A stretch of 31,888 nucleotides of DNA. It comes from a virus. The notes under the pieces were generated by a model, which saw nothing but the letters and a program-made list of their open reading frames with translations, made no database searches and was not told the origin of the DNA. The DNA lies in IMG/VR virus record IMGVR_UViG_3300020478_000036, positions 1 through 31,888 of that record, one strand, 5' to 3'. Positions 6,055 through 24,648 of the stretch are shown here, in pieces. Numbering within the stretch: the first letter of the stretch is position 1; each line of letters starts with the position of its first letter. Position numbers and translations under genes: made by a program.

Positions 6055-6080
6055 TCTTGCTTTTAAAAGGAGAAGCTATT

Positions 6081-6479
6081 ATGGTTAATATAGACCAACT
6101 TATGCCTTATACGATAGGCTTTGATCGTATGTTTAATATGTTAAATAGAGACTTTGTTCCATCAACATATCCACCTTATAATATTAGAAAGGTAGGTGAA
6201 TATAATTTTTATATTGATATGGCATTAGCCGGATTTAATAAAGATGATATTGAAGTTAAAATTGCTGATGGAGAACTTTCTGTTAAATCTAAAGTTAAGA
6301 ATAATGATAAAGAAGAAACTTTATATAAAGGAATAGCACAACGTAGTTTTAATAAACTATTTACATTAGCTGATGATGTTGAAGTTAAAGATGCTGAGTT
6401 AACTAATGGAATGCTTACAATTAGTCTGGAAAAAATTGTTCCAGATGAAAAGAAACCTAGAGTAATTAAAATTAATTAG
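6081..6479 (+). CDS. hsp20: Small heat-shock protein Hsp20 (IbpA-like)
   Basis: This 132-aa chaperone has the IbpA layout: an N-terminal FDRMFNML segment (residues 14-21), an alpha-crystallin domain with YNFYIDMALAGFNKDDIEV and LTNGMLTISLEK, and the C-terminal IxI anchor as VIKI. AAAAGGAGAAG upstream supports the ATG at 6081; starting at 6057 would add residues that overlap this SD. Hsp20 genes are known in marine cyanophages and other marine phages. Its place between portal and scaffold suggests it protects capsid or tail subunits from aggregation during assembly rather than serving the host, which is inference. Confidence 0.92.
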   Translation: MVNIDQLMPYTIGFDRMFNMLNRDFVPSTYPPYNIRKVGEYNFYIDMALAGFNKDDIEVKIADGELSVKSKVKNNDKEETLYKGIAQRSFNKLFTLADDVEVKDAELTNGMLTISLEKIVPDEKKPRVIKIN

Positions 6480-9717: not shown

Positions 9718-10068
9718 ATGCCAAAAAAGAAAAAAGACAAATATCAGGAATTAATGTTAAAAGGTCTAAAAGATCTTCAGATTAAACTCGGATCGGGCGC
9801 AGGACCTACCATACCTACTAACCCATTAAAAAATCGAAAGTATACAGTTGATAAATCAGGTCATGTACAATTTCAAAACTCAGGTGGCAAAATATATAGA
9901 CCTATATTAAAAGTTAATAAAGAAGGTAAAATTGTAGACTCTGGTAAAATTAGACAACCTGATGGTACTGTAAAAATTAATCCTAAAACTTATAAATTTA
10001 AAAACTCAGGTGGCAAGATTTCTAAATACTATGCCGGCGGTGGAAACGTAATAACTGGGAGAGACTAA
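9718..10068 (+). CDS. Small basic protein 1 with shared C-terminal TGRD tag
   Basis: This 116-aa protein has a very basic start (MPKKKKDKYQELML) and ends with the tag GGKISKYYAGGGNVITGRD (residues 98-116). A second SGGKI occurs internally (about residue 57), within a beta-like repeat region (QPDGTVKINPKTYKFKNSGG). The next two genes end in close variants of the same tag while their N-terminal parts differ. SD AGGGAGA follows the terminator. The final codons contain GGGAGAGA, the SD of the next gene, and the stop overlaps its start (TAATG). It may be an internal-head or capsid-targeted protein; the function is unknown. Confidence 0.8.
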   Translation: MPKKKKDKYQELMLKGLKDLQIKLGSGAGPTIPTNPLKNRKYTVDKSGHVQFQNSGGKIYRPILKVNKEGKIVDSGKIRQPDGTVKINPKTYKFKNSGGKISKYYAGGGNVITGRD

Positions 10069-10313
10069 TGCCAATTAAAATAGTACCAAAAAATAAAAAG
10101 AAATCAAAATCAGCTAAGCTAGCTGAAAAAAGTTTTAGTGAAACATATAAAGAAAGAATGCCAAGTGGTACTCCTTCACTTTCTGAAGCTATATTAGCCG
10201 GTGGTAAAATGGCTTGGAGAAAAGGTAAACATGCTTTAGGTTATAATAAAGGTGGAAAAGTTTCTAAGAACTGGTCATCATGTGGAGCTAACATAATAAC
10301 TGGGAGAGACTAG
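10068..10313 (+). CDS. Small basic protein 2 with shared C-terminal TGRD tag
   Basis: This 81-aa protein starts with a Lys-rich stretch (MPIKIVPKNKKKSKSAK), has a helical middle (ERMPSGTPSLSEAILAGGK) and ends GGKVSKNWSSCGANIITGRD, the shared tag with one extra residue. Its start codon overlaps the preceding stop, and the SD is carried by the preceding gene's TGRD codons. Its own TGRD codons (ACTGGGAGAGAC) serve the next gene. The net charge is strongly positive, suggesting nucleic-acid or acidic-scaffold contact. Confidence 0.8.
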   Translation: MPIKIVPKNKKKSKSAKLAEKSFSETYKERMPSGTPSLSEAILAGGKMAWRKGKHALGYNKGGKVSKNWSSCGANIITGRD

Positions 10314-10314
10314 T

Positions 10315-10539
10315 ATGAAAAATTCTGTTTTAAGTAAAATAGCTCCACAACATAAAAGACCACCTAAGATTAAAAAAGGTCCCCTTGATGATGGTTTAGG
10401 TCATGGATGGTTTGGAACTTTATATCGCGCAAATAAACATAATAGACGTAAAAAGATTGCACCAATTACTAGACAAAAAGGTGGAAAGATTTCTAAGTAC
10501 TACTCTGATGGTGGTAATGTAATAACTGGAAGAGACTAA
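10315..10539 (+). CDS. Small basic protein 3 with shared C-terminal TGRD tag
   Basis: This 74-aa basic protein (KHKRPPKIKKGPL-like N-terminal half, GLGHGWFGTLYRANKHNRRKK middle) ends GGKISKYYSDGGNVITGRD, almost identical to the first copy. Here the Gly codon is GGA instead of GGG and the next gene has its own SD (CGGGAGGG) downstream of the stop, so the tag is kept without an SD role. That argues for selection on the peptide. Confidence 0.8.
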   Translation: MKNSVLSKIAPQHKRPPKIKKGPLDDGLGHGWFGTLYRANKHNRRKKIAPITRQKGGKISKYYSDGGNVITGRD

Positions 10540-11171: not shown

Positions 11172-12245
11172 ATGGCTTTAACATATACGGAGCTAACGAC
11201 TTTAGTTAGGACTTGGTGTAATAGGGATGAAGAAGTAGTTTCTGATAGTGTTATACAAGATGCTTTACAATATGCAGCAGATAAAACTTATAGAACTTTA
11301 AGGGTTCCTCCTTTAGAGAATGTAGCGGTTTTTGTTAATACTGATAGTGAATTAGATAATGCAACAGTAGCAGCTACAAATATTAATCCAAGTAAAACTG
11401 AAATACAAGTACCTCAAGATTTAGTAGAAATTATTGCAATAAAAGAAACTGATTCAGCTGGTAATACAATAAGAGTATTTAATGAAAAGTTAGATGTAAG
11501 AACTTTTAATGATCCATTTGCAGAACGTTATACTAATAATAACTATTTTACTAGAGAAAGAAATGTTATATTTTTAAGTCCTGGATTTGGTTATTCTAAT
11601 TTAGGAACGGCAGCAAATATAGAAGTATATTATTATAGAAGACTTCCTGCATTAAATGCAAAGTATGCAGTTACAGAACTTAATTATGCTGCAGGATTAT
11701 TAACAACTTCAGGTGGGACTACCCCTTTATATTTTGTTAATGGAAATACAACGACGGCTTATGAAACTTTAGCTAAAGCTGAAACTGCTGATACAGGAAA
11801 AGTTACAGCTAAGGTAAATGGTGCAGTAAGTAACTCAACAGCTTTAACTAATGATACACGATCAGGTACTGTTGTTAATGGAATGCAAATATCTGGAACA
11901 GGAATTAGTGGTGTACCTACAGTATCAAATGCTTCTAATCAAAATAGTATTGTTATGTCCGCAGCACAAACAATTGCTGATGATGTTGATTTAATATTTT
12001 CTAATACAAATACTGCAAACTATATAGGTATAGATGTACCACATTGGTTAAGAGATGAAAATGAACGAATATTGGTTTACGGAGCATTGGCTCAAATATA
12101 TGCATTTACCCAAGATGATATTCAAGCGGCTAAGTTTGATAAATTATTTTACTCGGAAATAGCAGAACTAAATACAGCTGATAGACAAAGACAAGCATCA
12201 GGTGGTAATGTACAAATGAATTTTAACGGAAGAGGTATGATATGA
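11172..12245 (+). CDS. Head-to-tail adaptor protein (gp4/gp11-like) with inserted domain
   Basis: This 357-aa protein begins with the helical pattern typical of podovirus adaptors (YTELTTLVRTWCNRDE, VIQDALQYAADKTYRTLRVPPL, residues 4-48), continues through a beta region (PQDLVEIIAIKE, about 81-92) and YYYRRLPALN, and resumes near residue 285 with PHWLRDENERILVYGALAQI and a final helix. Between about 176 and 280 lies a Thr/Ser/Asn-rich beta insertion containing GMQISGTGISGVPTVS, a motif repeated in many phage surface proteins, so this copy likely carries a decoration domain. It would dock on the portal ring and hold the nozzle. SD AAGGGAGA supports the start. Confidence 0.82.
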   Translation: MALTYTELTTLVRTWCNRDEEVVSDSVIQDALQYAADKTYRTLRVPPLENVAVFVNTDSELDNATVAATNINPSKTEIQVPQDLVEIIAIKETDSAGNTIRVFNEKLDVRTFNDPFAERYTNNNYFTRERNVIFLSPGFGYSNLGTAANIEVYYYRRLPALNAKYAVTELNYAAGLLTTSGGTTPLYFVNGNTTTAYETLAKAETADTGKVTAKVNGAVSNSTALTNDTRSGTVVNGMQISGTGISGVPTVSNASNQNSIVMSAAQTIADDVDLIFSNTNTANYIGIDVPHWLRDENERILVYGALAQIYAFTQDDIQAAKFDKLFYSEIAELNTADRQRQASGGNVQMNFNGRGMI

Positions 12246-13366
12246 CAACTCCAGCAAGACCTGGGAAATTTACAGGAGCTACAGATACTGCCTCAGCAGG
12301 TAGTTATTTTGGAACAACACTACTTAGTGGAATATCAGACTTAGTTGCAGCTGATGTATCTTCTGCACAAACTTCAGCTACTAATGCAGCTACTAGTGAA
12401 ACTAATGCATCAACAAGTGCAACAACAGCAAGTACTCATGCAACAACGGCACAAAAGTTTGCTACTAATCCACATAATACACAATTTACTCATGATTCTA
12501 GTAACTACTATTCAGCATTACATTATGCTACTGAAGTATCGAATCAAACTACTTTAGCAACAACTGCAAGGACTGATGCACAAAAGTTTGCTACTAATGC
12601 TGCTAACTCTGCTTTTACATATAGTGGAAGTAGTTATTATTCAGCATTACACTATTCAGCAGCAGCAAGTACTTCTGCAACTGCAGCCGCTAGTAGTGCG
12701 ACTACTGCAGCAGGTCATGTTACTAGTGCAACTACTCAAGCAAATAATGCAGCTACAAGTGCGACTGCAGCTGGTAACAGTGCAAGTACTGCAAGTAGTC
12801 ATGCGACTACTGCAAGTGATAAAGCAACCCTTGCAACTAACTGGGCTACTAAGACAAATGGTGAACCAGAAACTGGTCAAGGTTATTCTGCTAAAGCTTG
12901 GGCTATAGGTGGTACAGGTGTAGATCATGCTTCAGGTGCTGGTAATGCTAAAGACTGGGCAATCGAAACAACAACAACTGCAGATAATACAGAGTATAGT
13001 GCTAAAGAATATGCAATAGGAACTCAATCAGGTCAAAGTGCTGGATCAGCTAAACAATGGGCTATTGGTGGTGGTTCTGGATTTACTACAAGTACAGCAG
13101 TGGCTGGAGGTTTATATTCAGCTAAGTATTATGCAGAACAAGCAGCAGCTTCAGCAGATAGTTTTGATGATGTTTATCTTGGTCCAAAGAGTTCTGATCC
13201 TACACAAGATAATGATGGAGATGCTTTAACATCTGGAGATTTATATTATAATACTGGAAGTAGTGAATTAAAGGTTTATAGTGGATCAGCTTGGGAAACT
13301 GCAGCAGTAAGTACATCAGGATTGCCAACTGCAGGTTTTACAATCGCAATGGCAATAGCCTTATAG
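12242..13366 (+). CDS. Tail fibre protein with Ala/Ser/Thr coiled-coil repeats
   Basis: This 374-aa protein overlaps the adaptor stop by four bases (ATGA). After a short N-terminal segment it has long Ala/Ser/Thr-rich stretches interrupted by two repeats of AQKFATN followed by YYSALHY (about residues 75-100 and 118-143), then a series of AKxWAIG / SAKEYA / AKYYAEQ units (about 215-300), then FDDVYLGPKSSDPTQDNDG and YYNTGSSELKVYSGSAWE near the end. This module order is typical of trimeric marine-phage side fibres. The low-complexity codon pattern makes long open frames in other phases; these are shadows. It is likely the main fibre shaft, linking tail to the mini-fibre modules downstream. Confidence 0.85.
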   Translation: MTTPARPGKFTGATDTASAGSYFGTTLLSGISDLVAADVSSAQTSATNAATSETNASTSATTASTHATTAQKFATNPHNTQFTHDSSNYYSALHYATEVSNQTTLATTARTDAQKFATNAANSAFTYSGSSYYSALHYSAAASTSATAAASSATTAAGHVTSATTQANNAATSATAAGNSASTASSHATTASDKATLATNWATKTNGEPETGQGYSAKAWAIGGTGVDHASGAGNAKDWAIETTTTADNTEYSAKEYAIGTQSGQSAGSAKQWAIGGGSGFTTSTAVAGGLYSAKYYAEQAAASADSFDDVYLGPKSSDPTQDNDGDALTSGDLYYNTGSSELKVYSGSAWETAAVSTSGLPTAGFTIAMAIAL

Positions 13367-13376
13367 GGAGAAAGGA

Positions 13377-13748
13377 ATGGCACAAAATTTTAGAAGGTAT
13401 GCATTAAGAAGTATAGGTACAACAGCAGCAGATGCTCCTGATGGTACTGATTTTAATTCATATGATACAATAATAGGAATACATTTAGCAAATAGAACAA
13501 CTAATACAATTAATGCTACTGTATTTATCACAGACTATAATGACGATGCAGATGATGATCCAACAAATAATGCTGCTAATACGTACTACTTATTAAAAGA
13601 TGCACCTATACCAGCAGGATCTGCATTACAAGTAATGGATGGTGGAGCTAAGATCGTTGTTCAAGATGGTGATCGATTATGGATTCAATCTGATACAGCA
13701 AGTTCATTAGACGCATGGGTTTCTGTTGTAGATGCAATAAGTACATAG
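13377..13748 (+). CDS. Fibre-associated virion protein
   Basis: This 123-aa beta-rich protein (FRRYALRSIGTTAADAP at the start, YYLLKDAPIPAGSALQVMDG and KIVVQDGDRLWIQSDTA later, ending VSVVDAIST) belongs to a type I recall beside fibre genes in many marine podoviruses and myoviruses. It probably forms a small beta-sandwich attached to the fibre or tail. SD GGGAGAAAGG precedes the ATG, and it is the first small gene after the shaft protein. Confidence 0.75.
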   Translation: MAQNFRRYALRSIGTTAADAPDGTDFNSYDTIIGIHLANRTTNTINATVFITDYNDDADDDPTNNAANTYYLLKDAPIPAGSALQVMDGGAKIVVQDGDRLWIQSDTASSLDAWVSVVDAIST

Positions 13749-13757: not shown

Positions 13758-14258
13758 ATGGGATATGTAGGAAATCGAGCAAGTAGTTCCTTTAATAGTA
13801 TGACTAAACAAGATCTTACAGGTGCTAGTGGTAGTTCATTAACTTTATCAAATGTAGTAGCTAATGAAAATGAAATAGAATTATTTATTAATCATGTTAG
13901 ACAAGAACCAACAACATCTTATACAGCAAGTGGAACTACTGTTACATTGCAAGGTTATTCTGTAGCAGCAACTGATGATATATATGTAATATATGCAGGT
14001 AAAGGTCAACAAACTACAGTAACACCAGATGGCTCTGTAACAAGTGCTAAGCTAGGTAGTGGCGTTGTACATGGTTTAGGAATATTTAAAGGTGATACCT
14101 CACAAGACTTAGGTGCTATTATAAGAGTACATGAAAATGAATTAAATTCAAATGTAACTATTGATGCTAATACAAATGGAATAGCAAGTGGACCATTGAC
14201 AATAGCTAGTGGTGTTACATTAACTATAACTAGTGGAGGAGCATTGTCAATCGTATGA
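13758..14258 (+). CDS. Mini-fibre module with 'GVTLT..SGG.L.IV' C terminus
   Basis: This 166-aa protein is beta-rich (LTGASGSSLTLSNVVANE, SVTSAKLGSGVVH) and ends NGIASGPLTIASG followed by VTLTITSGGALSIV, a parallel-beta-like tip shared with the genes at 16140 and 18526. All three are followed at once by a gene with an MS(S/T)-x-L type start. Its last codons contain GGAGGAG (SD), and the stop overlaps the next ATG (ATGA). It would be a fibre or adhesin component; the receptor is unknown. Confidence 0.8.
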   Translation: MGYVGNRASSSFNSMTKQDLTGASGSSLTLSNVVANENEIELFINHVRQEPTTSYTASGTTVTLQGYSVAATDDIYVIYAGKGQQTTVTPDGSVTSAKLGSGVVHGLGIFKGDTSQDLGAIIRVHENELNSNVTIDANTNGIASGPLTIASGVTLTITSGGALSIV

Positions 14259-14902
14259 GTACATTAAAAGTTAATACAATACAAGATACAGCTACTAATA
14301 ATGCTATGACTATTAGTGGTGGTGTTGTTACATTTCCTAATAAACCATCAGGAACAACTTCATTAGAGTTAATTGCTAGTGATACCACAGGTGGTAGTGG
14401 TGCAACTATTGAATTTGATTTATCTACAAATACTAAATACTTTTCACAAAAATTAATAATTTGGGGAGTATACAGAACTGATGGTTCTGATGGTGATCTT
14501 TATGGGTCAGCAAGAAATGATGCTGATAACTCTTATATTGGTAGTGGATATTATACCAGTGTAGTTGGTTATCATTCCCAAGGTAGTGGTGGCAGAACTA
14601 ATTCAAATGCAGGTGATTGGAATGCAACTTATTTCAGAATTGGTGGTTACAATATTGGAGACAGTGCAGAACATGAAGATAATGTATGGGAATTTGATTT
14701 TTATAATTCTATAGGTACTACAAAAAGAATGTCTTACATCGGAAGAAGAATTGGACACAGTTCTGATGCTACACTTGCAGTAGAAACTTTTGGTGGAAGA
14801 TTATTACATACTGCTCAAATTGATAGATTTAAATTAGAAAATGGTTCTGGTGCAACTACAGGTTACGCAGGCTATCAGCTTTACGGATTATTAAAAGCAT
14901 AA
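14255..14902 (+). CDS. Mini-fibre protein, MSTLKV-type N terminus, jelly-roll-like
   Basis: This 215-aa protein is the longest module of the array. It begins MSTLKVNTIQDTATNNAM, the short connector found on most members of the array, followed by a Gly/Ser/Asp-rich beta domain (TTSLELIASDTTGGSG, FSQKLIIWGVYRTDG) and ends AGYQLYGLLKA, the end strand typical of beta-jelly-roll phage tip proteins. It starts in an ATGA overlap. The domain after the connector differs from that of the tandem family at 15215-17666, as expected for exchangeable receptor-binding tips. Confidence 0.8.
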   Translation: MSTLKVNTIQDTATNNAMTISGGVVTFPNKPSGTTSLELIASDTTGGSGATIEFDLSTNTKYFSQKLIIWGVYRTDGSDGDLYGSARNDADNSYIGSGYYTSVVGYHSQGSGGRTNSNAGDWNATYFRIGGYNIGDSAEHEDNVWEFDFYNSIGTTKRMSYIGRRIGHSSDATLAVETFGGRLLHTAQIDRFKLENGSGATTGYAGYQLYGLLKA

Positions 14903-14917
14903 ATAAAGGAGATAGGT

Positions 14918-15211
14918 ATGCCAAGATTTAAAATGGTAAATGGAGAAAGAATCCAGCTTACATCAGAAGAAGAAAAAGAAGTAGATGCGAAGATAAAGGC
15001 ATGGGCTGATGGAGCTCCTTCTCGTAGAATGTCTGCCTTAAGAGAAAAACGAAATAGATTATTAGCAGAAACAGATTGGATGGCTAATTCAGATGTAACG
15101 ATGAGTGCCGATTGGAAGACATATAGACAAGAACTTAGAGATATTACAAAACAAACACCAACTGATGATGACCTTAGTAATATTAAATTTCCAGCTAAAC
15201 CTAAGGAGTAG
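14918..15211 (+). CDS. Tail-fibre assembly chaperone-like protein
   Basis: This 97-aa charged helical protein carries RNRLLAETDWMANSDVTMS and DWKTYRQELRDITKQTP (about residues 45-82), the hallmark of the phage tail assembly chaperone family (Phage_tail_APC type), in which 'LLAETDW...YRQALRDIT' is conserved. Such proteins help fibre tips trimerise. It has its own SD (AAAGGAGA) and lies among mini-fibre genes, as chaperones usually do. The N-terminal 45 residues (MPRFKMVNGERIQLTSEEE) are a short beta-like start plus a charged helix. Confidence 0.88.
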   Translation: MPRFKMVNGERIQLTSEEEKEVDAKIKAWADGAPSRRMSALREKRNRLLAETDWMANSDVTMSADWKTYRQELRDITKQTPTDDDLSNIKFPAKPKE

Positions 15212-15214
15212 ATA

Positions 15215-15679
15215 ATGGGTACATTAAGATTAAGCGAAATACAAAACCCTAGTGGTACAAGTGCTATAACAGTAAATGAAAGTACTGGTATTACTGGTTT
15301 TCCTGCAGGTTTATCAGGTAGTATTACTGTACAAGGAGAAGGTAGTAATAATACTAATCTTCAACAAGGATTAACAAAACATTGGGTATATTTTAAAGGT
15401 ACAACTACAACTGAAATAAAAGATAGTTTTAATTGTTCTAGTTTAGGGGATAATGGAACAGGTGATACTACAACTAATATGACAACTGCCTTTAATAGTG
15501 CTTTTTATTGTGGTGCATCTAATGCAGCTTATGGTAGTACAAATGGTGGTAGAGGTTTAAGTGCTCCACATAATGATGCTATAAATACAACATATATACG
15601 AATAAACTCTCACTCAGGAACTAATACTGCAACTGATTTATTATATAATATGTTTTCTATTGATGGAGATTTAGCATGA
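15215..15679 (+). CDS. Mini-fibre protein, tandem family copy 1, GDLA end
   Basis: This 154-aa protein starts MGTLRLSEIQNPSGTSAITV (connector), then VQGEGSNNTNLQQGLTKHWV and a domain with DSFNCSSLGDNGTGD, and ends SIDGDLA. It is the first of five adjacent paralogs (15215, 15676, 16349, 16789, 17253) sharing K-x-W, DS-x-N-x-(S/A)S and D-x3-G signatures and, in most, the NNM element. The codons of the final GDLA (GGAGATTTAGC) are the SD of the next gene, whose ATG overlaps the stop. It is probably a fibre tip or virion adhesin. Confidence 0.82.
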   Translation: MGTLRLSEIQNPSGTSAITVNESTGITGFPAGLSGSITVQGEGSNNTNLQQGLTKHWVYFKGTTTTEIKDSFNCSSLGDNGTGDTTTNMTTAFNSAFYCGASNAAYGSTNGGRGLSAPHNDAINTTYIRINSHSGTNTATDLLYNMFSIDGDLA

Positions 15680-15687
15680 GTACATTA
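15665..15687 (+). repeat. Gene-junction repeat, exact copy 1
   Basis: A 23-base junction, GGAGATTTAGC followed by ATGAGTACATTA, spans the end of one mini-fibre gene and the start of the next. It is identical to 16778-16800. It encodes GDLA and stop in one frame and MSTL in the other, and holds the SD. A copy with two mismatches lies at 17242-17264 and a half copy at 17652-17666. Confidence 0.9.
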
Positions 15688-16122
15688 AAAGTCGGTGCAA
15701 TACAAAGCACAACAGGTAATGCAGCAGTAACAGTTGCAGCTAATGGTAATCTCACTATTCCAGGAGCTACTAGTATATCTAATACTTCTACATATAATTC
15801 AGATGGAGGAGCAGTCAATCAAAATCTTGTACAAGCAATAGTTAAGGTCTGGAGAAAGTTTAATGGCAGTGATGCAAGCTCTTATGATTCATTTAACATC
15901 TCATCAGGTACAGATAATAGTACTGGTAATTATACTCATACCTTTTCTAGTAATATGAGTGCATTACATTATTCAAATACTTTAGGAAATAACACAAGTG
16001 GAAACTATATAATTACAGTAAATGGTACTGCTACAAGTTCTTTAACAACTAAATCAATGAGTGATAGTACAGCTGCACATGATGACGATGGTGCATTAAC
16101 ATTACATGGAGACCTCGCATAA
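15676..16122 (+). CDS. Mini-fibre protein, tandem family copy 2, GDLA end
   Basis: This 148-aa protein starts MSTLKVGAIQSTTGNAAVTV in an ATGA overlap. It has NLVQAIVKVWRKFNGSD, DSFNISSGTDNSTGN and a beta region, and ends TLHGDLA. Its GDLA codons are GGAGACCTCGCA and the overlap has been lost: the stop is TAA and the next gene uses a separate SD (AGGAGATT) 18 bases later. The GDLA residues are kept although they no longer supply the SD, so they probably matter in the protein. Confidence 0.82.
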   Translation: MSTLKVGAIQSTTGNAAVTVAANGNLTIPGATSISNTSTYNSDGGAVNQNLVQAIVKVWRKFNGSDASSYDSFNISSGTDNSTGNYTHTFSSNMSALHYSNTLGNNTSGNYIITVNGTATSSLTTKSMSDSTAAHDDDGALTLHGDLA

Positions 16123-16139
16123 ATAAATAGGAGATTAGT

Positions 16140-16352
16140 ATGCCAAGAAGTACAATAAGTGTAGGATACTTTCAGGGAGATGGAGGTACTGCAGTAGGTG
16201 ATAAAGCCAATATATTTAGGACAGTCGAAAAGACTTTAAACACAAATACAACAATAGCAGCGACTGACAACTCTTATGCTCCAGGTCCAATTACAGTGGC
16301 AAATGGAGTTACACTAACAGTTGCAAGTGGTGGGAGGCTCGTAATAGTATGA
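16140..16352 (+). CDS. Short module ending 'GVTLTVASGGRLVIV'
   Basis: This 70-aa protein (starts MPRSTISVGYFQGDGG) is mainly the beta tip seen on the 13758 and 18526 products: NTTIAATDNSYAPGPITVAN then GVTLTVASGGRLVIV. It looks like a minimal or shortened version of those genes, keeping only the end module. Its last codons GGGAGG act as the SD and overlap the next MSTL gene (ATGA). It has its own SD AGGAGATT. Confidence 0.75.
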   Translation: MPRSTISVGYFQGDGGTAVGDKANIFRTVEKTLNTNTTIAATDNSYAPGPITVANGVTLTVASGGRLVIV

Positions 16353-16792
16353 GTACATTAGCAGCAGATACAATTACAAATGTCGCTGGGAGTTCAGCAG
16401 GAACTACTATCACCATAGATAAAGACTCTACATTTAATTCTGAAGGTACAGCAGTTACACAGAATCTTATAACAGGAGTCAATAAGCAGTGGATAAATTA
16501 TAGTATGCACGATGCATCAATTAGGGATAGCTTTAATACAACTAGCATTACAGATAATACAACTGGTGATTTTTCAATTACTATTGCAAACAATATGGCT
16601 AATACTACTTACGTAACAGCAGTAGATGGTAATTATAATTTAGCTAATGGAAACTATACTGCTGGTAGTGCCAATGGTTTAGAAATATATAGACAAATGA
16701 CAACAACAGCATATGATCATATTGCCGCTTCTTCAGGAAGCACATACGATTTTAAATGGGTATTAAGTTGTAATCTAGGAGATTTAGCATGA
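16349..16792 (+). CDS. Mini-fibre protein, tandem family copy 3, GDLA end
   Basis: This 147-aa protein begins MSTLAADTITNVAGSSAG and has NLITGVNKQWINYSMHD, DSFNTTSITDNTTGD, an ANNMANTTYV element and the ending SCNLGDLA. It overlaps both neighbours by ATGA. The K-x-W, DSFN and NNM signatures align with copies 1, 2, 4 and 5, while the region after NNM is highly variable, consistent with a shared scaffold and a changeable surface. Confidence 0.82.
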   Translation: MSTLAADTITNVAGSSAGTTITIDKDSTFNSEGTAVTQNLITGVNKQWINYSMHDASIRDSFNTTSITDNTTGDFSITIANNMANTTYVTAVDGNYNLANGNYTAGSANGLEIYRQMTTTAYDHIAASSGSTYDFKWVLSCNLGDLA

Positions 16793-16800
16793 GTACATTA
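16778..16800 (+). repeat. Gene-junction repeat, exact copy 2
   Basis: This is the same 23-base junction as 15665-15687 with no mismatch. It joins copy 3 and copy 4 of the tandem family. The identity exceeds that of the flanking coding DNA, so it may be a recent recombination product or a preferred crossover site. Confidence 0.9.
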
Positions 16801-17256
16801 GTAGTAGACCAATTACAAGGTGCAACAAATAATACAATTACAATACCAGCAGGAACAACGATAACAAATAGTGGAACAGCTAATAACTTTGGTGTATCAG
16901 ATCCTAATGCAAGTTCGTCTACATTAGTTAAACAATGGATAAACTATAAAGGTAGCTCTACTAATGAGATTAGAGATAGTATTAATTGTTCATCAGTTAC
17001 AGATAGTTCTGCTGGAAATTACAGACCTGTCTTTACTAATAACATGGATAATACTACTTATGCTTTATATGGTTGTAGTGATGGCAGAGGAAGTGGGGAT
17101 ACCCCAGATGATGGAATGTTTGTTTTAGGAACAACTAGTACATATAGTATTGCACAAGCTACTAATACTTATGGTATACTTTGTGGAACTTATCAAAATG
17201 GATCAAGATTGGATATAGATAATGTTCATATACACATAAATGGAGATTTAGTATGA
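16789..17256 (+). CDS. Mini-fibre protein, tandem family copy 4, GDLV end
   Basis: This 155-aa protein starts MSTLVVDQLQGATNNTITI. It contains STLVKQWINYKGSSTNEI, DSINCSSVTDSSAGN and FTNNMDNTTYALYGC, then a variable region and HIHINGDLV. It has ATGA overlaps at both ends; the junction with copy 5 differs from the exact repeat at two bases (GTATGA and ACACTA). It is likely an adhesin or tip subunit. Confidence 0.82.
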   Translation: MSTLVVDQLQGATNNTITIPAGTTITNSGTANNFGVSDPNASSSTLVKQWINYKGSSTNEIRDSINCSSVTDSSAGNYRPVFTNNMDNTTYALYGCSDGRGSGDTPDDGMFVLGTTSTYSIAQATNTYGILCGTYQNGSRLDIDNVHIHINGDLV

Positions 17257-17666
17257 GTACACTAGCAATTAACACATTAACAGGACAATCTTCAGCTTCA
17301 AGTATTAATGTAAGAGGTGAAGGTAGTGCTAATACAAATCTTCAGCAGGGATTGGCTAAATTTTGGCATCAAACAAATGCAAGTAGTGGTACTCCTGCTA
17401 CCCAAGATTCACTTAATTTAGCTAGTATAACTGATAATGGAGTAGGAAACTTTACTTTTAATTTTACAAATAACATGGGTAATAATGATTATTCTTTTAC
17501 TCATTATGCAATAACAAGTGGATACTACTCATTATATCATGGTGCTAGTTTATCTGTAGGCACATCATCTTTACAGCTTAGAGATAATCATACTCCTAAT
17601 TTGTCAAGTGCTGACGTAATAGACCATACACATATTAATGATACTATACACGGAGACCTAGCATGA
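17253..17666 (+). CDS. Mini-fibre protein, tandem family copy 5, GDLA end
   Basis: This 137-aa protein starts MSTLAINTLTGQSSASSI. Its VRGEGSANTNLQQGLAKFW closely resembles VQGEGSNNTNLQQGLTKHW of copy 1 although three paralogs lie between, which suggests copies 1 and 5 are sisters or exchanged this segment. It also has DSLNLASITDNGVGN and FTNNMGNNDYSF, and ends TIHGDLA with GGAGACCTAGC as the SD for the next gene (ATGA overlap). Confidence 0.82.
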   Translation: MSTLAINTLTGQSSASSINVRGEGSANTNLQQGLAKFWHQTNASSGTPATQDSLNLASITDNGVGNFTFNFTNNMGNNDYSFTHYAITSGYYSLYHGASLSVGTSSLQLRDNHTPNLSSADVIDHTHINDTIHGDLA

Positions 17667-18130
17667 TTCAAACACCAAAGTTTAAAGGAACACATTTATT
17701 CGCAAGACTAGGTTGGGCTAAAGAAAATCTAGAACCTTTTCAATCAGATATAAGAGTTGTATATGAAGACGGACTAGATGACCCTGCAAAGATATTAGTA
17801 CCAGATCCTAATTGGATGGCTTGTGCCTTACAAGGTGGCATATTACCTCCAGTAGAATCTTATTGGGAATTAGCTAAAGATGAAGCTAAACCTGATTTTA
17901 AAAGACACACAAGAGGATATCTGTTACACGATACAGAACCTGTTGGACCAATGACAGAAGAAGAAGCTATTGAATATCTAATCAAAAAAGATATTCCAAG
18001 TCATATATGGAAAACATGGAATGATGGCAATAAACCTAAAATGGTTATATGTCGTACACACCAGTTACCAAGCAATCGTGAGTGGCGAAATGCTTGGAAA
18101 ATTAATGAAGATATAGAACTAGCAGCATAG
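17663..18130 (+). CDS. Fibre-region accessory protein with 'PSNR.WRNAW' end
   Basis: This 155-aa soluble, charged protein is unlike the fibre modules. It contains VYEDGLDDPAKILVPDPNWM, EEEAIEYLIKKDIPSHIW and a C-terminal LPSNREWRNAWKINED. The next gene begins with a related PSDRHFRNAW segment. Proteins with this 'xRxFRNAW' element are common beside marine-phage fibre genes and may be assembly or chaperone factors, though I cannot name a characterised one. Its start lies in the last ATGA junction of the five-copy array. Confidence 0.72.
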   Translation: MIQTPKFKGTHLFARLGWAKENLEPFQSDIRVVYEDGLDDPAKILVPDPNWMACALQGGILPPVESYWELAKDEAKPDFKRHTRGYLLHDTEPVGPMTEEEAIEYLIKKDIPSHIWKTWNDGNKPKMVICRTHQLPSNREWRNAWKINEDIELAA

Positions 18131-18140
18131 GGAGAACTTA

Positions 18141-18515
18141 ATGACAAAAGTACATATCACAGATAAAAACGGTGCTTCGATAGAACAAACTGAAAAACTA
18201 TCAAAGCCATCAGACAGACACTTTAGAAATGCATGGGTAATTAGCAGTGGTGCTATAACCGAAGACATGACTGAAGCAAAGAAAATATTTCAAAATAAAA
18301 TTAGAGAAGTTAGAGAACCTCTATTAGCAGCAGAAGATGTTGTATATATGAAAGCAATAGAAGCTGATGATTCATCTGCAAAGTCTGCAAGTGCAGCTAA
18401 GAAAAAGAAACTTAGAGATGCTCCAGCAGCAAGTGCTATTAGCAGTGCAGATACAATAACAAAACTAAAAGCAGCTTGGGATGAAAGTATATTAGGAAAA
18501 AGTCCATACGCATAA
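18141..18515 (+). CDS. Helical fibre-region accessory protein, chaperone-like
   Basis: This 124-aa protein starts with PSDRHFRNAWVISSGAITED (residues 23-42) and continues as an Ala/Lys-rich helix with KIFQNKIREVREPLLAAED, a segment SAAKKKKLRDAPAASAIS and IDT-like end TKLKAAWDESILG. The pattern 'DM..A..I...KIR..R.PLL...D..YM.A.E' followed by 'LRD.PA...I' recurs in phage proteins next to fibres, similar in logic to tail fibre assembly chaperones. SD GGGAGAAC precedes the ATG. Confidence 0.75.
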   Translation: MTKVHITDKNGASIEQTEKLSKPSDRHFRNAWVISSGAITEDMTEAKKIFQNKIREVREPLLAAEDVVYMKAIEADDSSAKSASAAKKKKLRDAPAASAISSADTITKLKAAWDESILGKSPYA

Positions 18516-18525
18516 GGAGGTTTAA

Positions 18526-18990
18526 ATGCCATATATAGGGAAAGAACCATTACATGGTGAATATATAAAGTTAGATAACATTACAGCCTCTGCAACAGCA
18601 ACTTATAACCTTTTAAGAGGTGGAGCAGCATTTAGTCCAGGAACTGCAGAACAATGTATTGTTAGTCTTAACGGAGTTACACAAGCTCCAGGAGATGCTT
18701 ACACTATAAGTGGAAGCCAAATAACATTTAGTGAAGCATTGACAAGCAGTGATGTTATTAATTATATATTAGTCATGGGTAATAACTTATCTACTGGTAC
18801 ACCTTCTGCTGGATCTGTAACAGGTGCTCAACTAGCTAATACATTATTTAGAGATCCATTGAGAATAAATGATGCATCTATTGATGCAAATATTACAATA
18901 GCAAGCACAGAGAGAGCCATGGCAGCTGGAGATATTTCAGTGGCTAATGGTGTAACATTAACAGTTAACGGAGTATTGACCATTGTCTAG
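18526..18990 (+). CDS. Mini-fibre module with 'GVTLTV.GVLTIV' C terminus
   Basis: This 154-aa beta-rich protein starts MPYIGKEPLHGEYIKLDNI, an N terminus common among marine-phage fibre proteins, has EQCIVSLNGVTQAPGDAYT and ISGSQITFSEALTSSDVIN in the middle (like the 13758 product), and ends DASIDANITIASTERAM then GVTLTVNGVLTIV. It is the third [IV-ending gene]+[MS-start gene] pair. A very strong SD AAGGAGG precedes it. Its last codons (GGAGTATTG) supply the SD of the next gene, which starts with TTG inside this ORF. Confidence 0.8.
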   Translation: MPYIGKEPLHGEYIKLDNITASATATYNLLRGGAAFSPGTAEQCIVSLNGVTQAPGDAYTISGSQITFSEALTSSDVINYILVMGNNLSTGTPSAGSVTGAQLANTLFRDPLRINDASIDANITIASTERAMAAGDISVANGVTLTVNGVLTIV

Positions 18991-19435
18991 TAAATTATAT
19001 GTGGACTCGATAGAGCCAAAAACAACAGGTGGTAGTATAAGTATTTCTAATGCTGTAGTTAGTCAACCAACTAAACCTTATTGGGTATTAGGCGTAACTT
19101 CATCAGGGCAAGTAGAAGGCGATATAGCTTTTGATAATGAGCATGTAGTTAGAGGAGTAACTCATTCTAGTGGAAATGTTACAATACTTACTGCTGGTTT
19201 ATATTTATGTACATTTATGACTAATGCAGATGGAACTGCAACTTATAAATATATAAGAAAGAATGGTACGCAAATGTATAATCCAATGACTCAATGGCAT
19301 AATGGAGCTGATAGTAACACTTTAATTCTTCCTATTGATTGTGAAGTAAACGATGTACTTGATTGTTATCATCACACTGCTGGAAATGGAACTTGGGGTC
19401 ATAATACTTTATTTACAGGAGTACTAATGGGATGA
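18983..19435 (+). CDS. Mini-fibre protein, C1q/TNF-like jelly roll, TTG start
   Basis: This 150-aa protein starts at TTG (18983), 9 bases after GGAG, giving SSKLYVDSIEPKTTGGSIS, which matches the connector of the MSTL family. The rest resembles a C1q/TNF-like jelly roll: ILTAGLYLCTFMTNADGT, KYIRKNGTQMYN and LPIDCEVNDVLDCYHH. No ATG alternative keeps the connector. It ends GVLMG with an ATGA overlap. The fold assignment is by pattern, not alignment. Confidence 0.75.
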   Translation: MSSKLYVDSIEPKTTGGSISISNAVVSQPTKPYWVLGVTSSGQVEGDIAFDNEHVVRGVTHSSGNVTILTAGLYLCTFMTNADGTATYKYIRKNGTQMYNPMTQWHNGADSNTLILPIDCEVNDVLDCYHHTAGNGTWGHNTLFTGVLMG

Positions 19436-19932
19436 GTGGAGTAATAACAGCAACGAATTTGCAAACAACTAATATAAAAAATACAAGTGGTACTACTTAT
19501 AACTTTATTAAGCAAGTTGTCCAACCAGCAAAACTTTCAAACACTGGTTCAAGTACACAAACAACGCCTACTGGTAATGCTACATGGTCTGACACTGGTT
19601 TAACAGCAGCAATAACACCTAGTTCATCTTCAAGTAAGGTATTAATCTTTTGTAATGGTTTATTTTATTTGAGAAGAAATGAAGAAATTAGATTTAGATT
19701 TATGAGAGATAGTACAGCTATTTTGACAATGTGTGGTTATGCAGAAACATCAGATGGCTTTTTCACAATGACAGCACCATCTGGTTATATGGATTCTCCA
19801 AGCACTACTAGTGCAACAACATATAAATTACAGTTTTATGCACAATCAGAATATGCATCAATGAGATTTAACTATAGTGGTACTTCTTCACTTGGTGAAG
19901 CATCAATAACTTTATTAGAGGTAGCTGGATAA
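19432..19932 (+). CDS. Mini-fibre protein, 'ITPSS..SKVLI / LDSP.TTSA.TYK' family
   Basis: This 166-aa protein starts MSGVITATNLQTTNIKNTSG. Its main domain has TPSSSSSKVLIFCNGLFYL, FRFMRDSTAI, YMDSPSTTSATTYKLQFYAQ and the end ASITLLEVAG. The gene at 20496 carries the same set of motifs, so the two are paralogs separated by one unrelated module. These elements are common in marine-phage tip proteins as I recall. It has ATGA at the start and TAATG at the end. Confidence 0.8.
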   Translation: MSGVITATNLQTTNIKNTSGTTYNFIKQVVQPAKLSNTGSSTQTTPTGNATWSDTGLTAAITPSSSSSKVLIFCNGLFYLRRNEEIRFRFMRDSTAILTMCGYAETSDGFFTMTAPSGYMDSPSTTSATTYKLQFYAQSEYASMRFNYSGTSSLGEASITLLEVAG

Positions 19933-20492
19933 TGACAAGCATATTAAAAGTAAATAACATACAAAGTAGTGCAAGTAATGCTGCTATAACGATAAGTAGC
20001 AGTGGGGTTATATCACAACCTACCCTACCTATATTTAATGTAACGAAGACTGCAGATCAAAGTGGTATTGCTGATGCAACTGCTACATTAGTAACATTTG
20101 ATTCAATAACAGATGGAAGTAACGGAGGAAGAACAATTAATCAAGGTGGATTATGGGCTAGTAATAAATTAACAGTAACTGCTGATACTACTGGTTATTA
20201 CTGGGTTTATACTAATCTTTTTTGGGAATCTACTCAGGCTGTCGGTGGAGAAAACTATGGATATTGGAGAAAAAATGGCTCTATTATTCAAACGTATGTT
20301 TACTCAAATAGTTTAAATACAGCTCAAACTTCTGGATGTTTACAAGTTAATCAAATAGTTGATTTAACAACTACTGGAGATTATCTTGAACTATTTATTT
20401 ACTTTGATAATTCTAGTAGTGGTACAACTAACTTAAATCAAAATTCATTAGAGGCACAAAGAACAACTGCAGGAGGCTGGAAAGTAGGATAG
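19932..20492 (+). CDS. Mini-fibre protein, C1q/TNF-like jelly roll
   Basis: This 186-aa protein starts MTSILKVNNIQSSASNAAI (connector), then ISSSGVISQPTLPIFNVTKT, and has a jelly-roll-like domain with VTADTTGYYWVYTNLFWES, YGYWRKNGSIIQTYV and DYLELFIYFDNSSSGTTN, ending TAGGWKVG. Its connector end ISxxxVxSQPTxP matches the 18983 product, suggesting a common origin of these two. It is likely a receptor-binding or virion-surface subunit. Confidence 0.78.
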   Translation: MTSILKVNNIQSSASNAAITISSSGVISQPTLPIFNVTKTADQSGIADATATLVTFDSITDGSNGGRTINQGGLWASNKLTVTADTTGYYWVYTNLFWESTQAVGGENYGYWRKNGSIIQTYVYSNSLNTAQTSGCLQVNQIVDLTTTGDYLELFIYFDNSSSGTTNLNQNSLEAQRTTAGGWKVG

Positions 20493-20495
20493 ACT

Positions 20496-21056
20496 ATGGC
20501 ACTTACAAAATTAAATTTCGGTGGGAAACAGCAAGCTCTTGTCGCTGCTAATGTTCCTACTCTTACTAGTACTCAAATGCCTGCTGGTACAGTATTACAG
20601 ACCAAACAAGTTAGTGTTACAGATGTATTTAGTACACAAAGCCAATCATACGTTGATATTACTGGTTTAACTATATCTATTACACCCAGTTCAACTAGCA
20701 ATAAGATATTAATAACTGGAGCGTTGGCTCTTGGAAGTAGTAATTATTATATCTATGTAAATTTAATGAGAGATAGTACAGAGATAGCTCATGGTGCAAC
20801 TGCTAGTAACAGACCAAGAATGTGGTTAGGAACTCCATACTTTGGATCTAGTAATGATGATTATTCTCTAATGATTTACTCTCCAAATTTTTTAGATTCT
20901 CCAAATACCACAAGTGCAATAACTTATAAGTGTCAAATGAGAACATATGATGGTTCTGCATATGGATATCTTAATAGATCACATCAAGATAGAGATACTG
21001 CTCATTATGAACCTCGTGGTAGATCAAACTTAACTGTTCAAGAGATTAAAGGCTAA
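20496..21056 (+). CDS. Mini-fibre protein, paralog of the 19432 product
   Basis: This 186-aa protein begins MALTKLNFGGKQQALVAANV rather than with the MSTL connector, then AGTVLQTKQVSVTDVFSTQ, ISITPSSTSNKILITGAL, NLMRDSTEIAHG, FLDSPNTTSAITYKCQMRTY and NLTVQEIKG. The second half parallels the 19432 product motif by motif. The SD is weak (GGATAGACT) and close to the upstream stop. It is the last member of the array before the membrane/lysis cluster. Confidence 0.8.
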   Translation: MALTKLNFGGKQQALVAANVPTLTSTQMPAGTVLQTKQVSVTDVFSTQSQSYVDITGLTISITPSSTSNKILITGALALGSSNYYIYVNLMRDSTEIAHGATASNRPRMWLGTPYFGSSNDDYSLMIYSPNFLDSPNTTSAITYKCQMRTYDGSAYGYLNRSHQDRDTAHYEPRGRSNLTVQEIKG

Positions 21057-22423: not shown

Positions 22424-22819
22424 ATGTTAACAGCTTTAATAGGACCCGTCTCAAATCTTTTAGGAAAGTTTATAGAAGATAAAGACGTTAAAAATAAACT
22501 CGCTCATGAGTTATCAACAATGGCAGAACGCCATGCTCAAGAATTAGCTAAAGGCCAATTAGAAATTAATAAAGCCGAAGCAACACATAAGTCTATATTT
22601 GTTGCAGGTTGGCGTCCATTTATTGGATGGACTTGTGGTATTGCTTTATGTTGGCATTTTGTTATTGCACCATTTACAATGTTTATATGTGCATATCTTA
22701 TGGTAGCAATACCAGAACTACCAACCTTTGATATGGGATCATTAATGACTGTTCTCATGGGAATGCTTGGCCTCGGTGGGCTTCGTAGTTTTGAAAAATA
22801 TAAAGGTTTAACAAAGTAA
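22424..22819 (+). CDS. Holin of the 3TM superfamily
   Basis: This 131-aa protein has an N-terminal charged helix (KFIEDKDVKNKLAHELSTM, AERHAQELAKGQ) followed by VAGWRPFIGWTCGIALCWHF (first membrane segment), a second around FTMFICAYLMVAI and a third around LMTVLMGMLGLGGLRSFEK. This order and the WRPFIGW and GLGGLRSFEKYKG motifs are typical of the 3TM holin family (GTA_holin_3TM type). It would permeabilise the inner membrane to release the lysozyme encoded at 2131, far upstream. SD AAGGATTAAAT is weak. Confidence 0.9.
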   Translation: MLTALIGPVSNLLGKFIEDKDVKNKLAHELSTMAERHAQELAKGQLEINKAEATHKSIFVAGWRPFIGWTCGIALCWHFVIAPFTMFICAYLMVAIPELPTFDMGSLMTVLMGMLGLGGLRSFEKYKGLTK

Positions 22820-22872: not shown

Positions 22873-24648
22873 ATGCGTAATATAGAGTATACTGGTCCAG
22901 ATAAAGATATTTCCAAAGAAATCGATATGATGAAATATCGACAGAAAGATGAAAGCTTTGATGAGAAAATAAAAAGAATTGCAAGAACGTTAAGTGATGA
23001 TGATCAGCATCAATATGAATTAGAGGATATATTAGGTAACATGAGATTTCTACCTGCTGGTAGAGTTCAAGCCGCTATCGGATCTCAAAGAATTACAACA
23101 GCTTATAACTGTTTTGTATCAGGTGAGATTGAAGATAGTATGGATAATATAATGGAGAAAGCCGGTGAAGCAGCTGAAACAATGCGTAGAGGGGGTGGGA
23201 TTGGTTATGACTTTAGTAAGATCCGACCAAGAGGCAACAAAATTAAATCGCTCGATAGCCAGGCTAGCGGCCCTGTATCCTTCATGGGTATCTTTGATGC
23301 TATCTGTCAAACCATCGCTAGCTCAGGACACCGCCGTGGGGCGCAAATGGGTGTCCTCCGGGTCGACCACCCGGACATTGAGGAATTCATTACTGCTAAA
23401 CGTAATACTCATAATCTTACTGGGTTTAATATTAGTGTAGGTGTAACCGATAAATTTATGGAGGCTTTGACAAGCGATGTGGGGGACGATTTTGATTTGG
23501 TGTACGAGGGCAAAGTGCATAGAACCATATCCGCCCGAAAACTATGGGATGATATTATGGATAGCACGTGGGATTGGGCTGAGCCTGGTGTTTTGTTTAT
23601 TGATAGAATTGCTGAGATGAATAACCTGTGGTATTGTGAAGAGATCAATGCTACAAATCCTTGTGGTGAACAACCACTACCAGCTTATGGTGCATGCTTA
23701 TTAGGTTCATTTAATTTAGCTGGTTACTTAGAAAAAGATCATGAGATAATGGGTGGTGATAAAATTCAGTATACTTATCTATTTAACTTTAAAAGATTTA
23801 AAGATGATATTATGCATGTTGTTAGGGCAATGGATAATGTTATAGATAGAACTATATACCCATTAACTAAACAGCAAGATGAAGCTAAAAATAAAAGAAG
23901 AATGGGGTTAGGTGTTACTGGCTTAGCTAATGCTGGAGAAATGTTAGGACATCAATATGCTTCTGAAGATTTTATGAAGTGGGCAGAAAAAGTATTTGCA
24001 TGTTTAAGAGATACTACTTATAAAGCATCTGCTTTAATTGCAAAAGAAAAAGGACCATTCCCATTATATAGAGAAGATTATTTAAAATCAAATTTTGTTA
24101 GAACATTACCAGCTTCTGTTAAAAAATTAATCAGAGAGCATGGTATACGTAATAGTCATCTAACATCTATAGCACCTACAGGAACGATAAGTATAGTTGC
24201 TAATAATGTTAGTGGTGGTATTGAACCTGTATTTAGTCATTATTACGACCGTACTATTCAAACTTTTGATGGACCAAAAACAGAGAGAGTTGAAGATTAT
24301 GCTTATACTCAAGGTGTAGAAGGCCGTACTGCAAACGATATAAGTGTTCAAGAGCACTTAGCTGTTTTATTGTTAGCACAACATTATATAGACAGTGCTT
24401 GTTCTAAAACCTGTAATGTAGGTGATGATGTTACTTATGAAAGTTTCAAACAAGTTTATGTTGATGCCTGGAAAGGCGGGGCGAAAGGATGCACTACGTT
24501 TAGACTTAGTGGTAAAAGGTACGGGGTACTACAAACCGTGGAAGAGAAAGAGAAAGTATCTAGCGAGACTGAGGAGATGGTTAAAGAAGAAGGAAAGATT
24601 GAGGCTTGCTTTATCGACCCAAACACTGGCCATAAAGAATGTGCTTAG
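22873..24648 (+). CDS. nrdJ: Ribonucleotide reductase, class II (adenosylcobalamin-dependent)
   Basis: This 591-aa enzyme would reduce ribonucleotides to deoxyribonucleotides for phage DNA synthesis, using adenosylcobalamin to make a thiyl radical. Key positions: Cys80 in AYNCFVSG and Cys275 in GACLLGSF (reducible pair), Asn262, Cys264 (thiyl) and Glu266 in TNPCGEQPL, a phosphate-binding APTGTIS at 434-440, and C-terminal Cys579 and Cys590 in CFIDPNTGHKEC that could re-reduce the active site. SKTCNVGDDV and GCTTFRLSGKR are class II features. It is shorter than many bacterial NrdJ proteins. Strong SD AGGGAGAT. The DNA from about 23225 to 23400 is markedly GC-rich against AT-rich flanks, suggesting recombination. 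It sits among late genes. Confidence 0.93.
   Translation: MRNIEYTGPDKDISKEIDMMKYRQKDESFDEKIKRIARTLSDDDQHQYELEDILGNMRFLPAGRVQAAIGSQRITTAYNCFVSGEIEDSMDNIMEKAGEAAETMRRGGGIGYDFSKIRPRGNKIKSLDSQASGPVSFMGIFDAICQTIASSGHRRGAQMGVLRVDHPDIEEFITAKRNTHNLTGFNISVGVTDKFMEALTSDVGDDFDLVYEGKVHRTISARKLWDDIMDSTWDWAEPGVLFIDRIAEMNNLWYCEEINATNPCGEQPLPAYGACLLGSFNLAGYLEKDHEIMGGDKIQYTYLFNFKRFKDDIMHVVRAMDNVIDRTIYPLTKQQDEAKNKRRMGLGVTGLANAGEMLGHQYASEDFMKWAEKVFACLRDTTYKASALIAKEKGPFPLYREDYLKSNFVRTLPASVKKLIREHGIRNSHLTSIAPTGTISIVANNVSGGIEPVFSHYYDRTIQTFDGPKTERVEDYAYTQGVEGRTANDISVQEHLAVLLLAQHYIDSACSKTCNVGDDVTYESFKQVYVDAWKGGAKGCTTFRLSGKRYGVLQTVEEKEKVSSETEEMVKEEGKIEACFIDPNTGHKECA

What the first reader, a model, noticed from the sequence alone, without database searches (positions are those of the whole stretch)
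13758..21056. Array of twelve small fibre or adhesin modules with chaperones embedded
Twelve beta-rich genes (70-215 codons) follow one another, most starting with the same short connector (M-S/T-S/T-x-L-x-V-x-x-I-Q type) followed by different C-terminal domains of at least four kinds: the K-x-W/DSFN/NNM family, C1q-like jelly rolls, the LDSP-TTSA family and the GVTLTV-SGG-IV tips. Accessory chaperone-like genes are at 14918, 17663 and 18141. Fibre genes with many domains are known; splitting the domains into so many separate overlapping genes with a common connector looks like a modular display system. I infer that the connector docks to a common site and the variable domain faces the host.
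Basis: partly seen in the sequence, partly recalled or inferred. Interest (0 to 1): 0.8.

Follow-up and report, generated by a model that had tools for sequence, protein, structure and literature searches.

The report
Plug-and-swap phage tail-fibre head array
A marine phage encodes its host-recognition tips not as one long fibre but as about ten small proteins in a fixed order, each made of a position-specific plug and an exchangeable tip, and relatives swap the tips between plugs, which suggests how an abundant ocean virus group could change what it binds.

Summary
Window 13758-21056 holds 16 overlapping genes: 13 small beta-rich proteins and 3 helpers. It is not a broken gene. The isolate HMO-2011 has the same array, and F-gene relatives occur in at least 595 viral stretches. 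Each position has its own connector, and the C-terminal domain is exchangeable. Across 153 family-A heads the connector names the slot in 148 cases; the cargo does so in 48 (chance 16%). Mean cargo identity is the same within and between slots (0.33). In L001, whose capsid gene is 98.9% identical to the window's, three of four comparable heads keep the connector (81-100% aa) but carry a different cargo (20-46% aa). HMO-2011 itself carries a swapped cargo. Genes ending in a B-type tip are followed by exactly three heads before gene F in 52 of 54 loci. Stand-alone A heads follow a tip gene in 267 of 280 cases, fused A domains in 2 of 34. Best reading: a branched receptor-binding system cut into plug-plus-tip cassettes, with F, G and the APC-like gene as assembly factors. 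It is a new variant of multi-receptor-binding-protein phages. Docking and stoichiometry are inferred, not shown.

The parts
12242..13366 (+). Long fibre stem gene (family I), repeat-rich, ends in ...GFTIAMAIAL
   Evidence: phrog_38058 and phrog_3279 tail fiber hits; HMO-2011 gp43 has the same C-terminus
13377..13748 (+). H: small protein always just before the first B gene
   Evidence: family in 79 loci; HMO-2011 gp42 'putative structural protein'; HTVC019P 'virion structural protein'
13758..14258 (+). B1: fibre segment with N-terminal beta domain and C-terminal tip (SGVTLTITSGGALSIV)
   Evidence: phrog_18673, phrog_5342; B profile hits PDB 9k4a 2.7e-8 and 8i4m 1.3e-5
14255..14902 (+). Head 1 after B1 (C2 cargo; connector MSTLKVNTIQ)
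   Evidence: connector 96% aa, rest 46% aa identical to L001
14918..15211 (+). e: tail-fibre assembly chaperone of the APC type
   Evidence: PF16778 48.9 bits above cut-off 26.6; e follows only non-A heads, 0 of 298 A heads
15215..15679 (+). Head 2 after B1 (A cargo; connector MGTLRLSEIQ)
   Evidence: phrog_11355 E 1.8e-11
15676..16122 (+). Head 3 after B1 (A cargo; connector MSTLKVGAIQSTTG, which carries other cargos in L001, L003 and L013)
   Evidence: phrog_11355 E 1.6e-7
16140..16352 (+). B70: short B-type gene consisting mainly of the tip
   Evidence: phrog_5342 C-terminus; tip HMM
16349..16792 (+). Head a1 after B70 (A cargo)
   Evidence: phrog_11355 E 4.3e-10; connector 100%, rest 32% aa identical to L001 over the part held
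16789..17256 (+). Head a2 (A cargo)
   Evidence: phrog_11355 E 1.5e-11
17253..17666 (+). Head a3 (A cargo); AlphaFold model made
   Evidence: phrog_11355 E 1.8e-15; pLDDT 80, beta fold 35-133; cargo 87% identical to a head in slot b2 of L165
17663..18130 (+). F: very conserved single-copy protein after the third head; probable assembly factor
   Evidence: 82% mean column identity; directly follows the A head(s) in Nostoc, Microcystis and SI2 phages; no known fold found
18141..18515 (+). G: probable fibre-assembly factor, weakly APC-like
   Evidence: phrog_20196, phrog_8746; APC-type HMM hits Nostoc and Microcystis G at about 2e-7
18526..18990 (+). B2: second full-length B fibre segment with tip
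   Evidence: phrog_18673 E 9.3e-36
18983..19435 (+). Head b1 (C cargo), TTG start overlapping B2
   Evidence: iterative C family HMM
19432..19932 (+). Head b2 (D cargo); L003 has a near-identical connector with C cargo
   Evidence: phrog_6942 C-terminal part
19932..20492 (+). Head b3 (C cargo; connector MTSILKVNNIQ)
   Evidence: iterative C family HMM
20496..21056 (+). Head b4 (D cargo; connector MALTK, the X-slot type)
   Evidence: phrog_6942 E 6.2e-16; M[AP]L[ST] starts 40 of 40 X-slot genes
15663..17668 (+). Junction word GGAGA(T/C)(T/C)TAG(C/T)ATGA at about 15665, 16778, 17242 and 17652: codes GDLA or GDLV plus stop and holds the ribosome-binding site of the next gene
   Evidence: GDLA ends 301 of 366 A genes, junction counts; window copies

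Best explanation
This is the receptor-binding head array of a marine podovirus related to HMO-2011 and CRP-7. Each B gene makes a fibre segment whose C-terminal tip is followed by three (block 1) or three plus one (block 2) small head genes. A head is a short N-terminal plug, fixed for that position, joined at a sharp boundary (the K-x-W motif in family A) to a C-terminal tip domain that can be exchanged. Translation of each head is coupled to the gene before it; in family A the last codons GDLA also form the next ribosome-binding site. Helper proteins F, G and, for some non-A cargos, an APC-like chaperone act in folding or attachment. Plugs hold each head at its own place on the B tip; cargo contacts the host surface; recombination in the plug and junction sequences replaces cargo without disturbing assembly. 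Shown here: order, number, slot-specific plugs, cargo exchange, coupling signals, and the match of heads to fibre C-termini elsewhere. Inferred: virion location, docking on the B tip, receptor binding, chaperone roles of F and G.
For: (1) Slot plugs: connector identity within slot 0.645, between slots 0.338; cargo 0.329 and 0.326; nearest-neighbour slot, 153 from connector, 48/153 from cargo. (2) Swaps: 14 cross-slot pairs with cargo >=80% and connector <50%; in seven pairs tested, DNA identity 0.85-0.99 in cargo and 0.57-0.69 in connector; HMO-2011 gp32 cargo 83.5% identical to a head in another slot of L102, connector 15%; window 17253 against L165 slot b2, cargo 87%, connector 57%. (3) L001 against window: capsid DNA 98.9%, stem, H, B and B70 91-100% DNA, three heads with plug kept and cargo replaced, sharp edges. 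(4) Same plug on different cargo families: X slot M[AP]L[ST] 40/40 over A, C, D and others; MSKAAELA on A, D and 330-370 aa cargos. (5) Number: 3 heads between B1 and F in 52/54 loci; 4 after B2 in 22/27. (6) Stand-alone A heads follow a tip gene 267/280, fused A 2/34. (7) Heads equal fibre C-termini elsewhere: phrog_6942 from 531 of 708 on, phrog_5342 3236-3319/3319, phrog_4492 775-1096/1096; SI2 has A fused to its main fibre followed by F and G; Nostoc phage has the tip fused to its main fibre followed by A, A, A, F, G. (8) A fold: many viral fibre proteins; best PDB second-look matches are phage tailspikes, phiAB6 Z 7.6 and Pam1 Z 6.8.
Against: No virion proteomics was available. Docking on the B tip rests on gene order only. 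The plug part of the A model has low confidence (pLDDT about 59-69). PDB fold matches are under Z 8. Connector covariation holds in block 1 (r 0.43-0.66) but not in block 2. Slot prediction from 10 residues for non-A cargo is 52/74 and fails for all four heads of the window's own block 2. Outside the HMO-2011-like loci the head number varies from 1 to 3. Most swap cases come from metagenomic contigs.
Confidence: 0.66

Rival explanations
1. Heteromeric tip: the three heads after each B gene are three different chains that assemble one copy each, so each fibre end shows three different binding domains. This is a special case of the best explanation.
For: Exactly three heads in 52/54 block-1 loci; distinct plug per position and position-specific clades (9 changes among 117 block-1 tips); block-1 plugs co-vary; A-A-A also follows the tip in Nostoc and Microcystis phages.
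Against: C1q domains are usually homotrimers (general knowledge) and occupy the same slots; block 2 mostly has a fourth head; distant phages have 1-3 heads; no complex was predicted.
Confidence: 0.22
2. One reading: all heads use one common connector and compete for one docking site, giving a mixed display.
For: Connectors share a loose pattern; relaxed motif in 9/16 array ORFs against 1/35 others.
Against: Connectors are slot-specific and name the slot in 148/153 cases; fixed head number and order.
Confidence: 0.12
3. Cargo differs only because it evolves fast in place; there is no exchange between slots.
For: Same-slot cargo is as diverged as cross-slot cargo, as strong diversifying selection alone might give.
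Against: Cross-slot pairs with cargo DNA up to 99% identical and unrelated plugs; one case involves the isolate HMO-2011, so chimeric contigs alone do not explain it; same plug on unrelated cargo families.
Confidence: 0.05
4. The products are not fibre heads but capsid decorations or secreted, non-virion proteins.
For: No proteomics seen here for any head.
Against: Same domains form C-termini of long tail fibres; stem, APC chaperone and tip genes adjoin.
Confidence: 0.06
5. A single fibre gene broken by sequencing or assembly errors.
For: Fused forms exist (SI2, pelagiphages).
Against: Isolate HMO-2011 and dozens of contigs have the same breaks; every new start has a ribosome site and there are separate chaperone genes between the parts.
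Confidence: 0.01

Closest known systems
Puniceispirillum phage HMO-2011 genes gp43-gp28 (NC_021864)
   Same: Same order of stem, H, B, heads, APC-like gene, head, F, G, X head, B, heads; heads annotated one by one as tail fiber or C1q proteins
   Different: In the open papers consulted the array, slots and swaps are not described; the window carries an extra tip gene (B70), an empty X slot and other cargos
Anchor-branch multi-RBP systems of Klebsiella and E. coli phages (K1-5, G7C, KP32 and KP34 groups, Menlow, PhiK64-1; PMC6872550)
   Same: Each receptor-binding protein has a short conserved N-terminal attachment peptide and an exchangeable C-terminal part; several per virion
   Different: There the proteins are mostly about 500-1300 aa spikes with depolymerase domains and number varies by group; here heads are mostly 110-220 aa, translationally coupled, in fixed sets of three, carry unrelated folds, and are swapped between slots
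Pelagiphages HTVC019P and Lederberg EXVC029P
   Same: Stem, H, B-type N-terminal domain, C1q or D cargo, MAITK-type head, APC chaperone
   Different: Cargo is fused to the B domain, with no tip and no trio of separate heads
Nostoc phage Nsp-JY18, Microcystis phage Mel-JY33 and Dunaliella virus SI2
   Same: A domains followed by F and G; A-A-A trio after a tip in the first two
   Different: Tip (first two) or A domain (SI2) is fused to the main fibre; one block only
Metaviromic islands of host-recognition genes in marine phages (PMC3909814)
   Same: Tail fiber and C1q genes are the most variable loci of abundant marine phages
   Different: That paper, in the passages read, reports variability but no slot plugs or cargo exchange

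Membership tests
Anchor-branch multi-RBP system | Conserved N-terminal peptide on each RBP with variable C-terminal part | tested here: met
Anchor-branch multi-RBP system | Anchor protein with a T4 gp10-like branching domain | tested here: inconclusive
   B profile against T4 gp10 P 0.027, against CBA120 orf213 N-terminus P 0.0087, E 0.36 to 7rej; 9k4a depolymerase 2.7e-8
Anchor-branch multi-RBP system | Large spikes with depolymerase domains | tested here: not met
   window heads are 137-215 aa with no Pfam enzyme domain
Anchor-branch multi-RBP system | Physical attachment of the extra RBPs to the anchor protein | not testable with these tools
   needs virion structure or pull-down
HMO-2011-type head array (as in NC_021864) | Gene order H-B-heads-F-G-B-heads with homologous families | tested here: met
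phrog_11355 tail fiber family (A heads) | Profile match | tested here: met
   five window genes, E 1.6e-7 to 1.8e-15
Phage_tail_APC (PF16778), gene 14918 | Score above the Pfam cut-off | tested here: met
   48.9 against 26.6 bits
Phage_tail_APC (PF16778), gene 18141 (G) | Score above the Pfam cut-off | tested here: not met
   13.1 against 26.6 bits; weak profile match P 0.0016
C1q (PF00386), genes 18983 and 19932 | Score above the Pfam cut-off | tested here: inconclusive
   no direct hit; same-family relatives pass, such as HMO-2011 gp31 40.4 bits
Diversity-generating retroelement | Reverse transcriptase plus template and variable repeats | not tested
   no reverse transcriptase among the window proteins scanned with Pfam, but the record is probably a partial genome

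The most novel reading that the evidence does not exclude
Each fibre tip is capped by three different head chains, one from each slot, whose plugs pair in a fixed order (a heteromeric receptor-binding tip), so a virion shows up to about ten distinct binding domains at defined places, and the phage changes binding by dropping cargo domains of unrelated folds into a constant set of plugs. To my knowledge phage fibres and spikes are as a rule homotrimers.
Probability: 0.25. Interest if true: 0.85.

Novelty: new variant of a known kind. Interest (0 to 1): 0.64.

Why it matters
[quoted passage not shown] A plug-and-cargo array would explain how such phages can alter binding without changing the rest of the virion, gives a simple rule for annotating many small 'hypothetical' or 'tail fiber' genes, and makes host-range prediction testable: read the cargo, ignore the plug. 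The fixed number of three heads per tip is a sharp structural prediction.

Tried and rejected
Assembly error or broken single gene: rejected (isolates, overlaps, embedded ribosome sites). One common connector: not supported. Solved-structure search with the A profile: no match. Foldseek of A against PDB: nothing at E <= 0.001; second-look matches to tailspikes are under Z 8. F against PDB by sequence and fold: only chance-level myosin hits and nothing convincing, so its chaperone label stays an inference from position. F and G share only a 22-residue motif (P 1.2e-4). T4 gp10 or CBA120 branching domain in B: inconclusive. Direct tblastn of the window's A head 17253 in phage isolates: no match at E 1e-3. 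Block-2 connector covariation: not significant. The Fisher test treats related loci as independent, so only its direction and size are used. A paper search for small shuffled fibre cassettes found nothing. A PHROGs call failed through my wrong coordinates and was rerun.
Full report
What was checked. The window is a whole IMG/VR virus record of 31,888 bases, probably part of a genome. It is from a marine podovirus-like phage: SU10-type portal and adaptor, capsid protein 52% identical to roseophage CRP-7. Between the fibre stem gene (12242-13366) and 21056 lie H, three genes with a B-type tip, ten small heads and three helper genes. All are on the + strand, mostly with 1- or 4-base overlaps.

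Not an artefact. HMO-2011, a cultured SAR116 phage, has the same array, annotated gene by gene as tail fiber or C1q proteins. I called ORFs in 233 sequences and built iterative HMMs for the families. The conserved frame is H-B-head-head-head-F-G-[X head]-B-head-head-head-(head).

Coupling. Of 366 A-family genes, 301 end in GDLA, mostly written GGAGA(C/T)... directly before ATGA or ATAATG. The end of one protein is therefore also the likely ribosome-binding site of the next. The Leu codon varies (CTC, TTA, CTA, CTT) while the residue is kept, so the protein sequence seems selected too.

Slots and cargo. Position-specific groups are clear on the A tree: nine changes among 117 block-1 tips, on a short alignment with many unresolved forks. 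Splitting A heads at the K-x-W motif separates two histories. Connectors are 0.645 identical within and 0.338 between slots. Cargo is 0.329 and 0.326. The nearest neighbour by connector names the slot in 148 of 153 cases, by cargo in 48. The same plug carries unrelated cargos: all 40 X-slot genes start M[AP]L[ST] over A, C, D and other cargos, and MSKAAELA starts A, D and 330-370 aa heads. For non-A cargo, slots predicted from ten residues are right in 52 of 74 (shuffled mean 18.5, highest 30). The misses include all four heads of the window's own block 2.

Exchange. Fourteen cross-slot pairs have cargo >=80% and connector <50%; in the seven pairs tested the DNA is 0.85-0.99 identical in cargo and 0.57-0.69 in connector. 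Two cases touch the material at hand: the isolate HMO-2011 (gp32 cargo 83.5%, connector 15%, against L102) and the window itself (17253 against L165, 87% and 57%). L001, 98.9% identical in the capsid gene, keeps plugs at 81-100% aa in three heads while cargo falls to 20-46% aa. The edges are sharp, near residues 25-40 of each head, and identity returns by the next gene.

Number and tip. In 52 of 54 loci exactly three heads lie between B1 and F; in 22 of 27 exactly four follow B2. Stand-alone A heads have a tip gene upstream in 267 of 280 cases, A domains fused to long fibres in 2 of 34. Outside this group the number of heads varies from 1 to 3.

Fused relatives. Dunaliella virus SI2 has an A domain at the end of its main fibre, followed by F and G. 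Nostoc phage Nsp-JY18 and Microcystis phage Mel-JY33 have the tip at the end of the main fibre, followed by A-A-A-F-G. Pelagiphages HTVC019P and Lederberg have the B domain fused to one C or D cargo. The D, tip and MSKAAELA-type cargos match the C-terminal ends of long fibre families. The heads are thus detached fibre ends, and F and G stand where fibre chaperones stand. The APC-like e gene follows non-A heads only (0 of 298 A heads).

Structure. The A head model (pLDDT 80) is a beta domain with an uncertain N-terminal plug. It matches many viral fibre proteins and, weakly, tailspike C-termini in the PDB. The F model (pLDDT 77.5) has no convincing match. The B N-terminal domain matches K1 depolymerase 9k4a and cyanophage fibre 8i4m by sequence profile.

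Mechanism. Best reading: plugs hold heads at set places near B tips, cargos bind the host, and recombination in plug and junction DNA swaps cargos. Serial stacking of heads on each other's cargo is unlikely, because cargo changes freely while order and plugs stay. Shown: order, number, plug specificity, exchange, coupling signals. Inferred: virion location, docking, receptor binding, chaperone roles. Exact threes and block-1 plug covariation leave room for a heteromeric tip.

Comparison. It works like anchor-branch receptor-binding systems (PMC6872550): conserved N-terminal peptides with exchangeable C-termini. The gp10-like branching domain test is inconclusive and window heads show no depolymerase domain, so membership is not claimed. 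The open papers read on HMO-2011-type phages do not describe slots. The original HMO-2011 paper was not read.

Noticed in passing
window 9718-10539: Three consecutive small genes after the capsid gene end in the same C-terminal tag (GGK-x-SKYY..GGNVITGRD and variants); 20 sequences held here have one to three such ORFs.
   Followed up: partly
window 1-172: Pyrimidine-rich tandem repeats (unit CCTATCCTTA) before the terminase gene; the word CCTATCCTTACC is in no other locus held.
   Followed up: partly
window 22873-24648: Ribonucleotide reductase gene (PF02867) sits inside the structural module, between the head array and the 1168-aa structural protein.
   Followed up: no
window 6057-6479: Hsp20-type small heat shock protein (PF00011, 66 bits) next to the portal gene.
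   Followed up: no
window 22424-22819: Three-TM holin of the gene-transfer-agent type (PF11351, 79.6 bits).
   Followed up: no
window 13758-14258 and 18526-18990: The B N-terminal domain profile matches twice in tandem near the N-terminus of the K1-specific depolymerase 9k4a: possible shared attachment domain between marine and Klebsiella phages.
   Followed up: partly
L235 5391-7719 (Dunaliella viridis virus SI2): A record filed as an alga virus carries A, F and G genes and a phage-like gene set, so it may be a phage of a bacterium in the algal culture.
   Followed up: no
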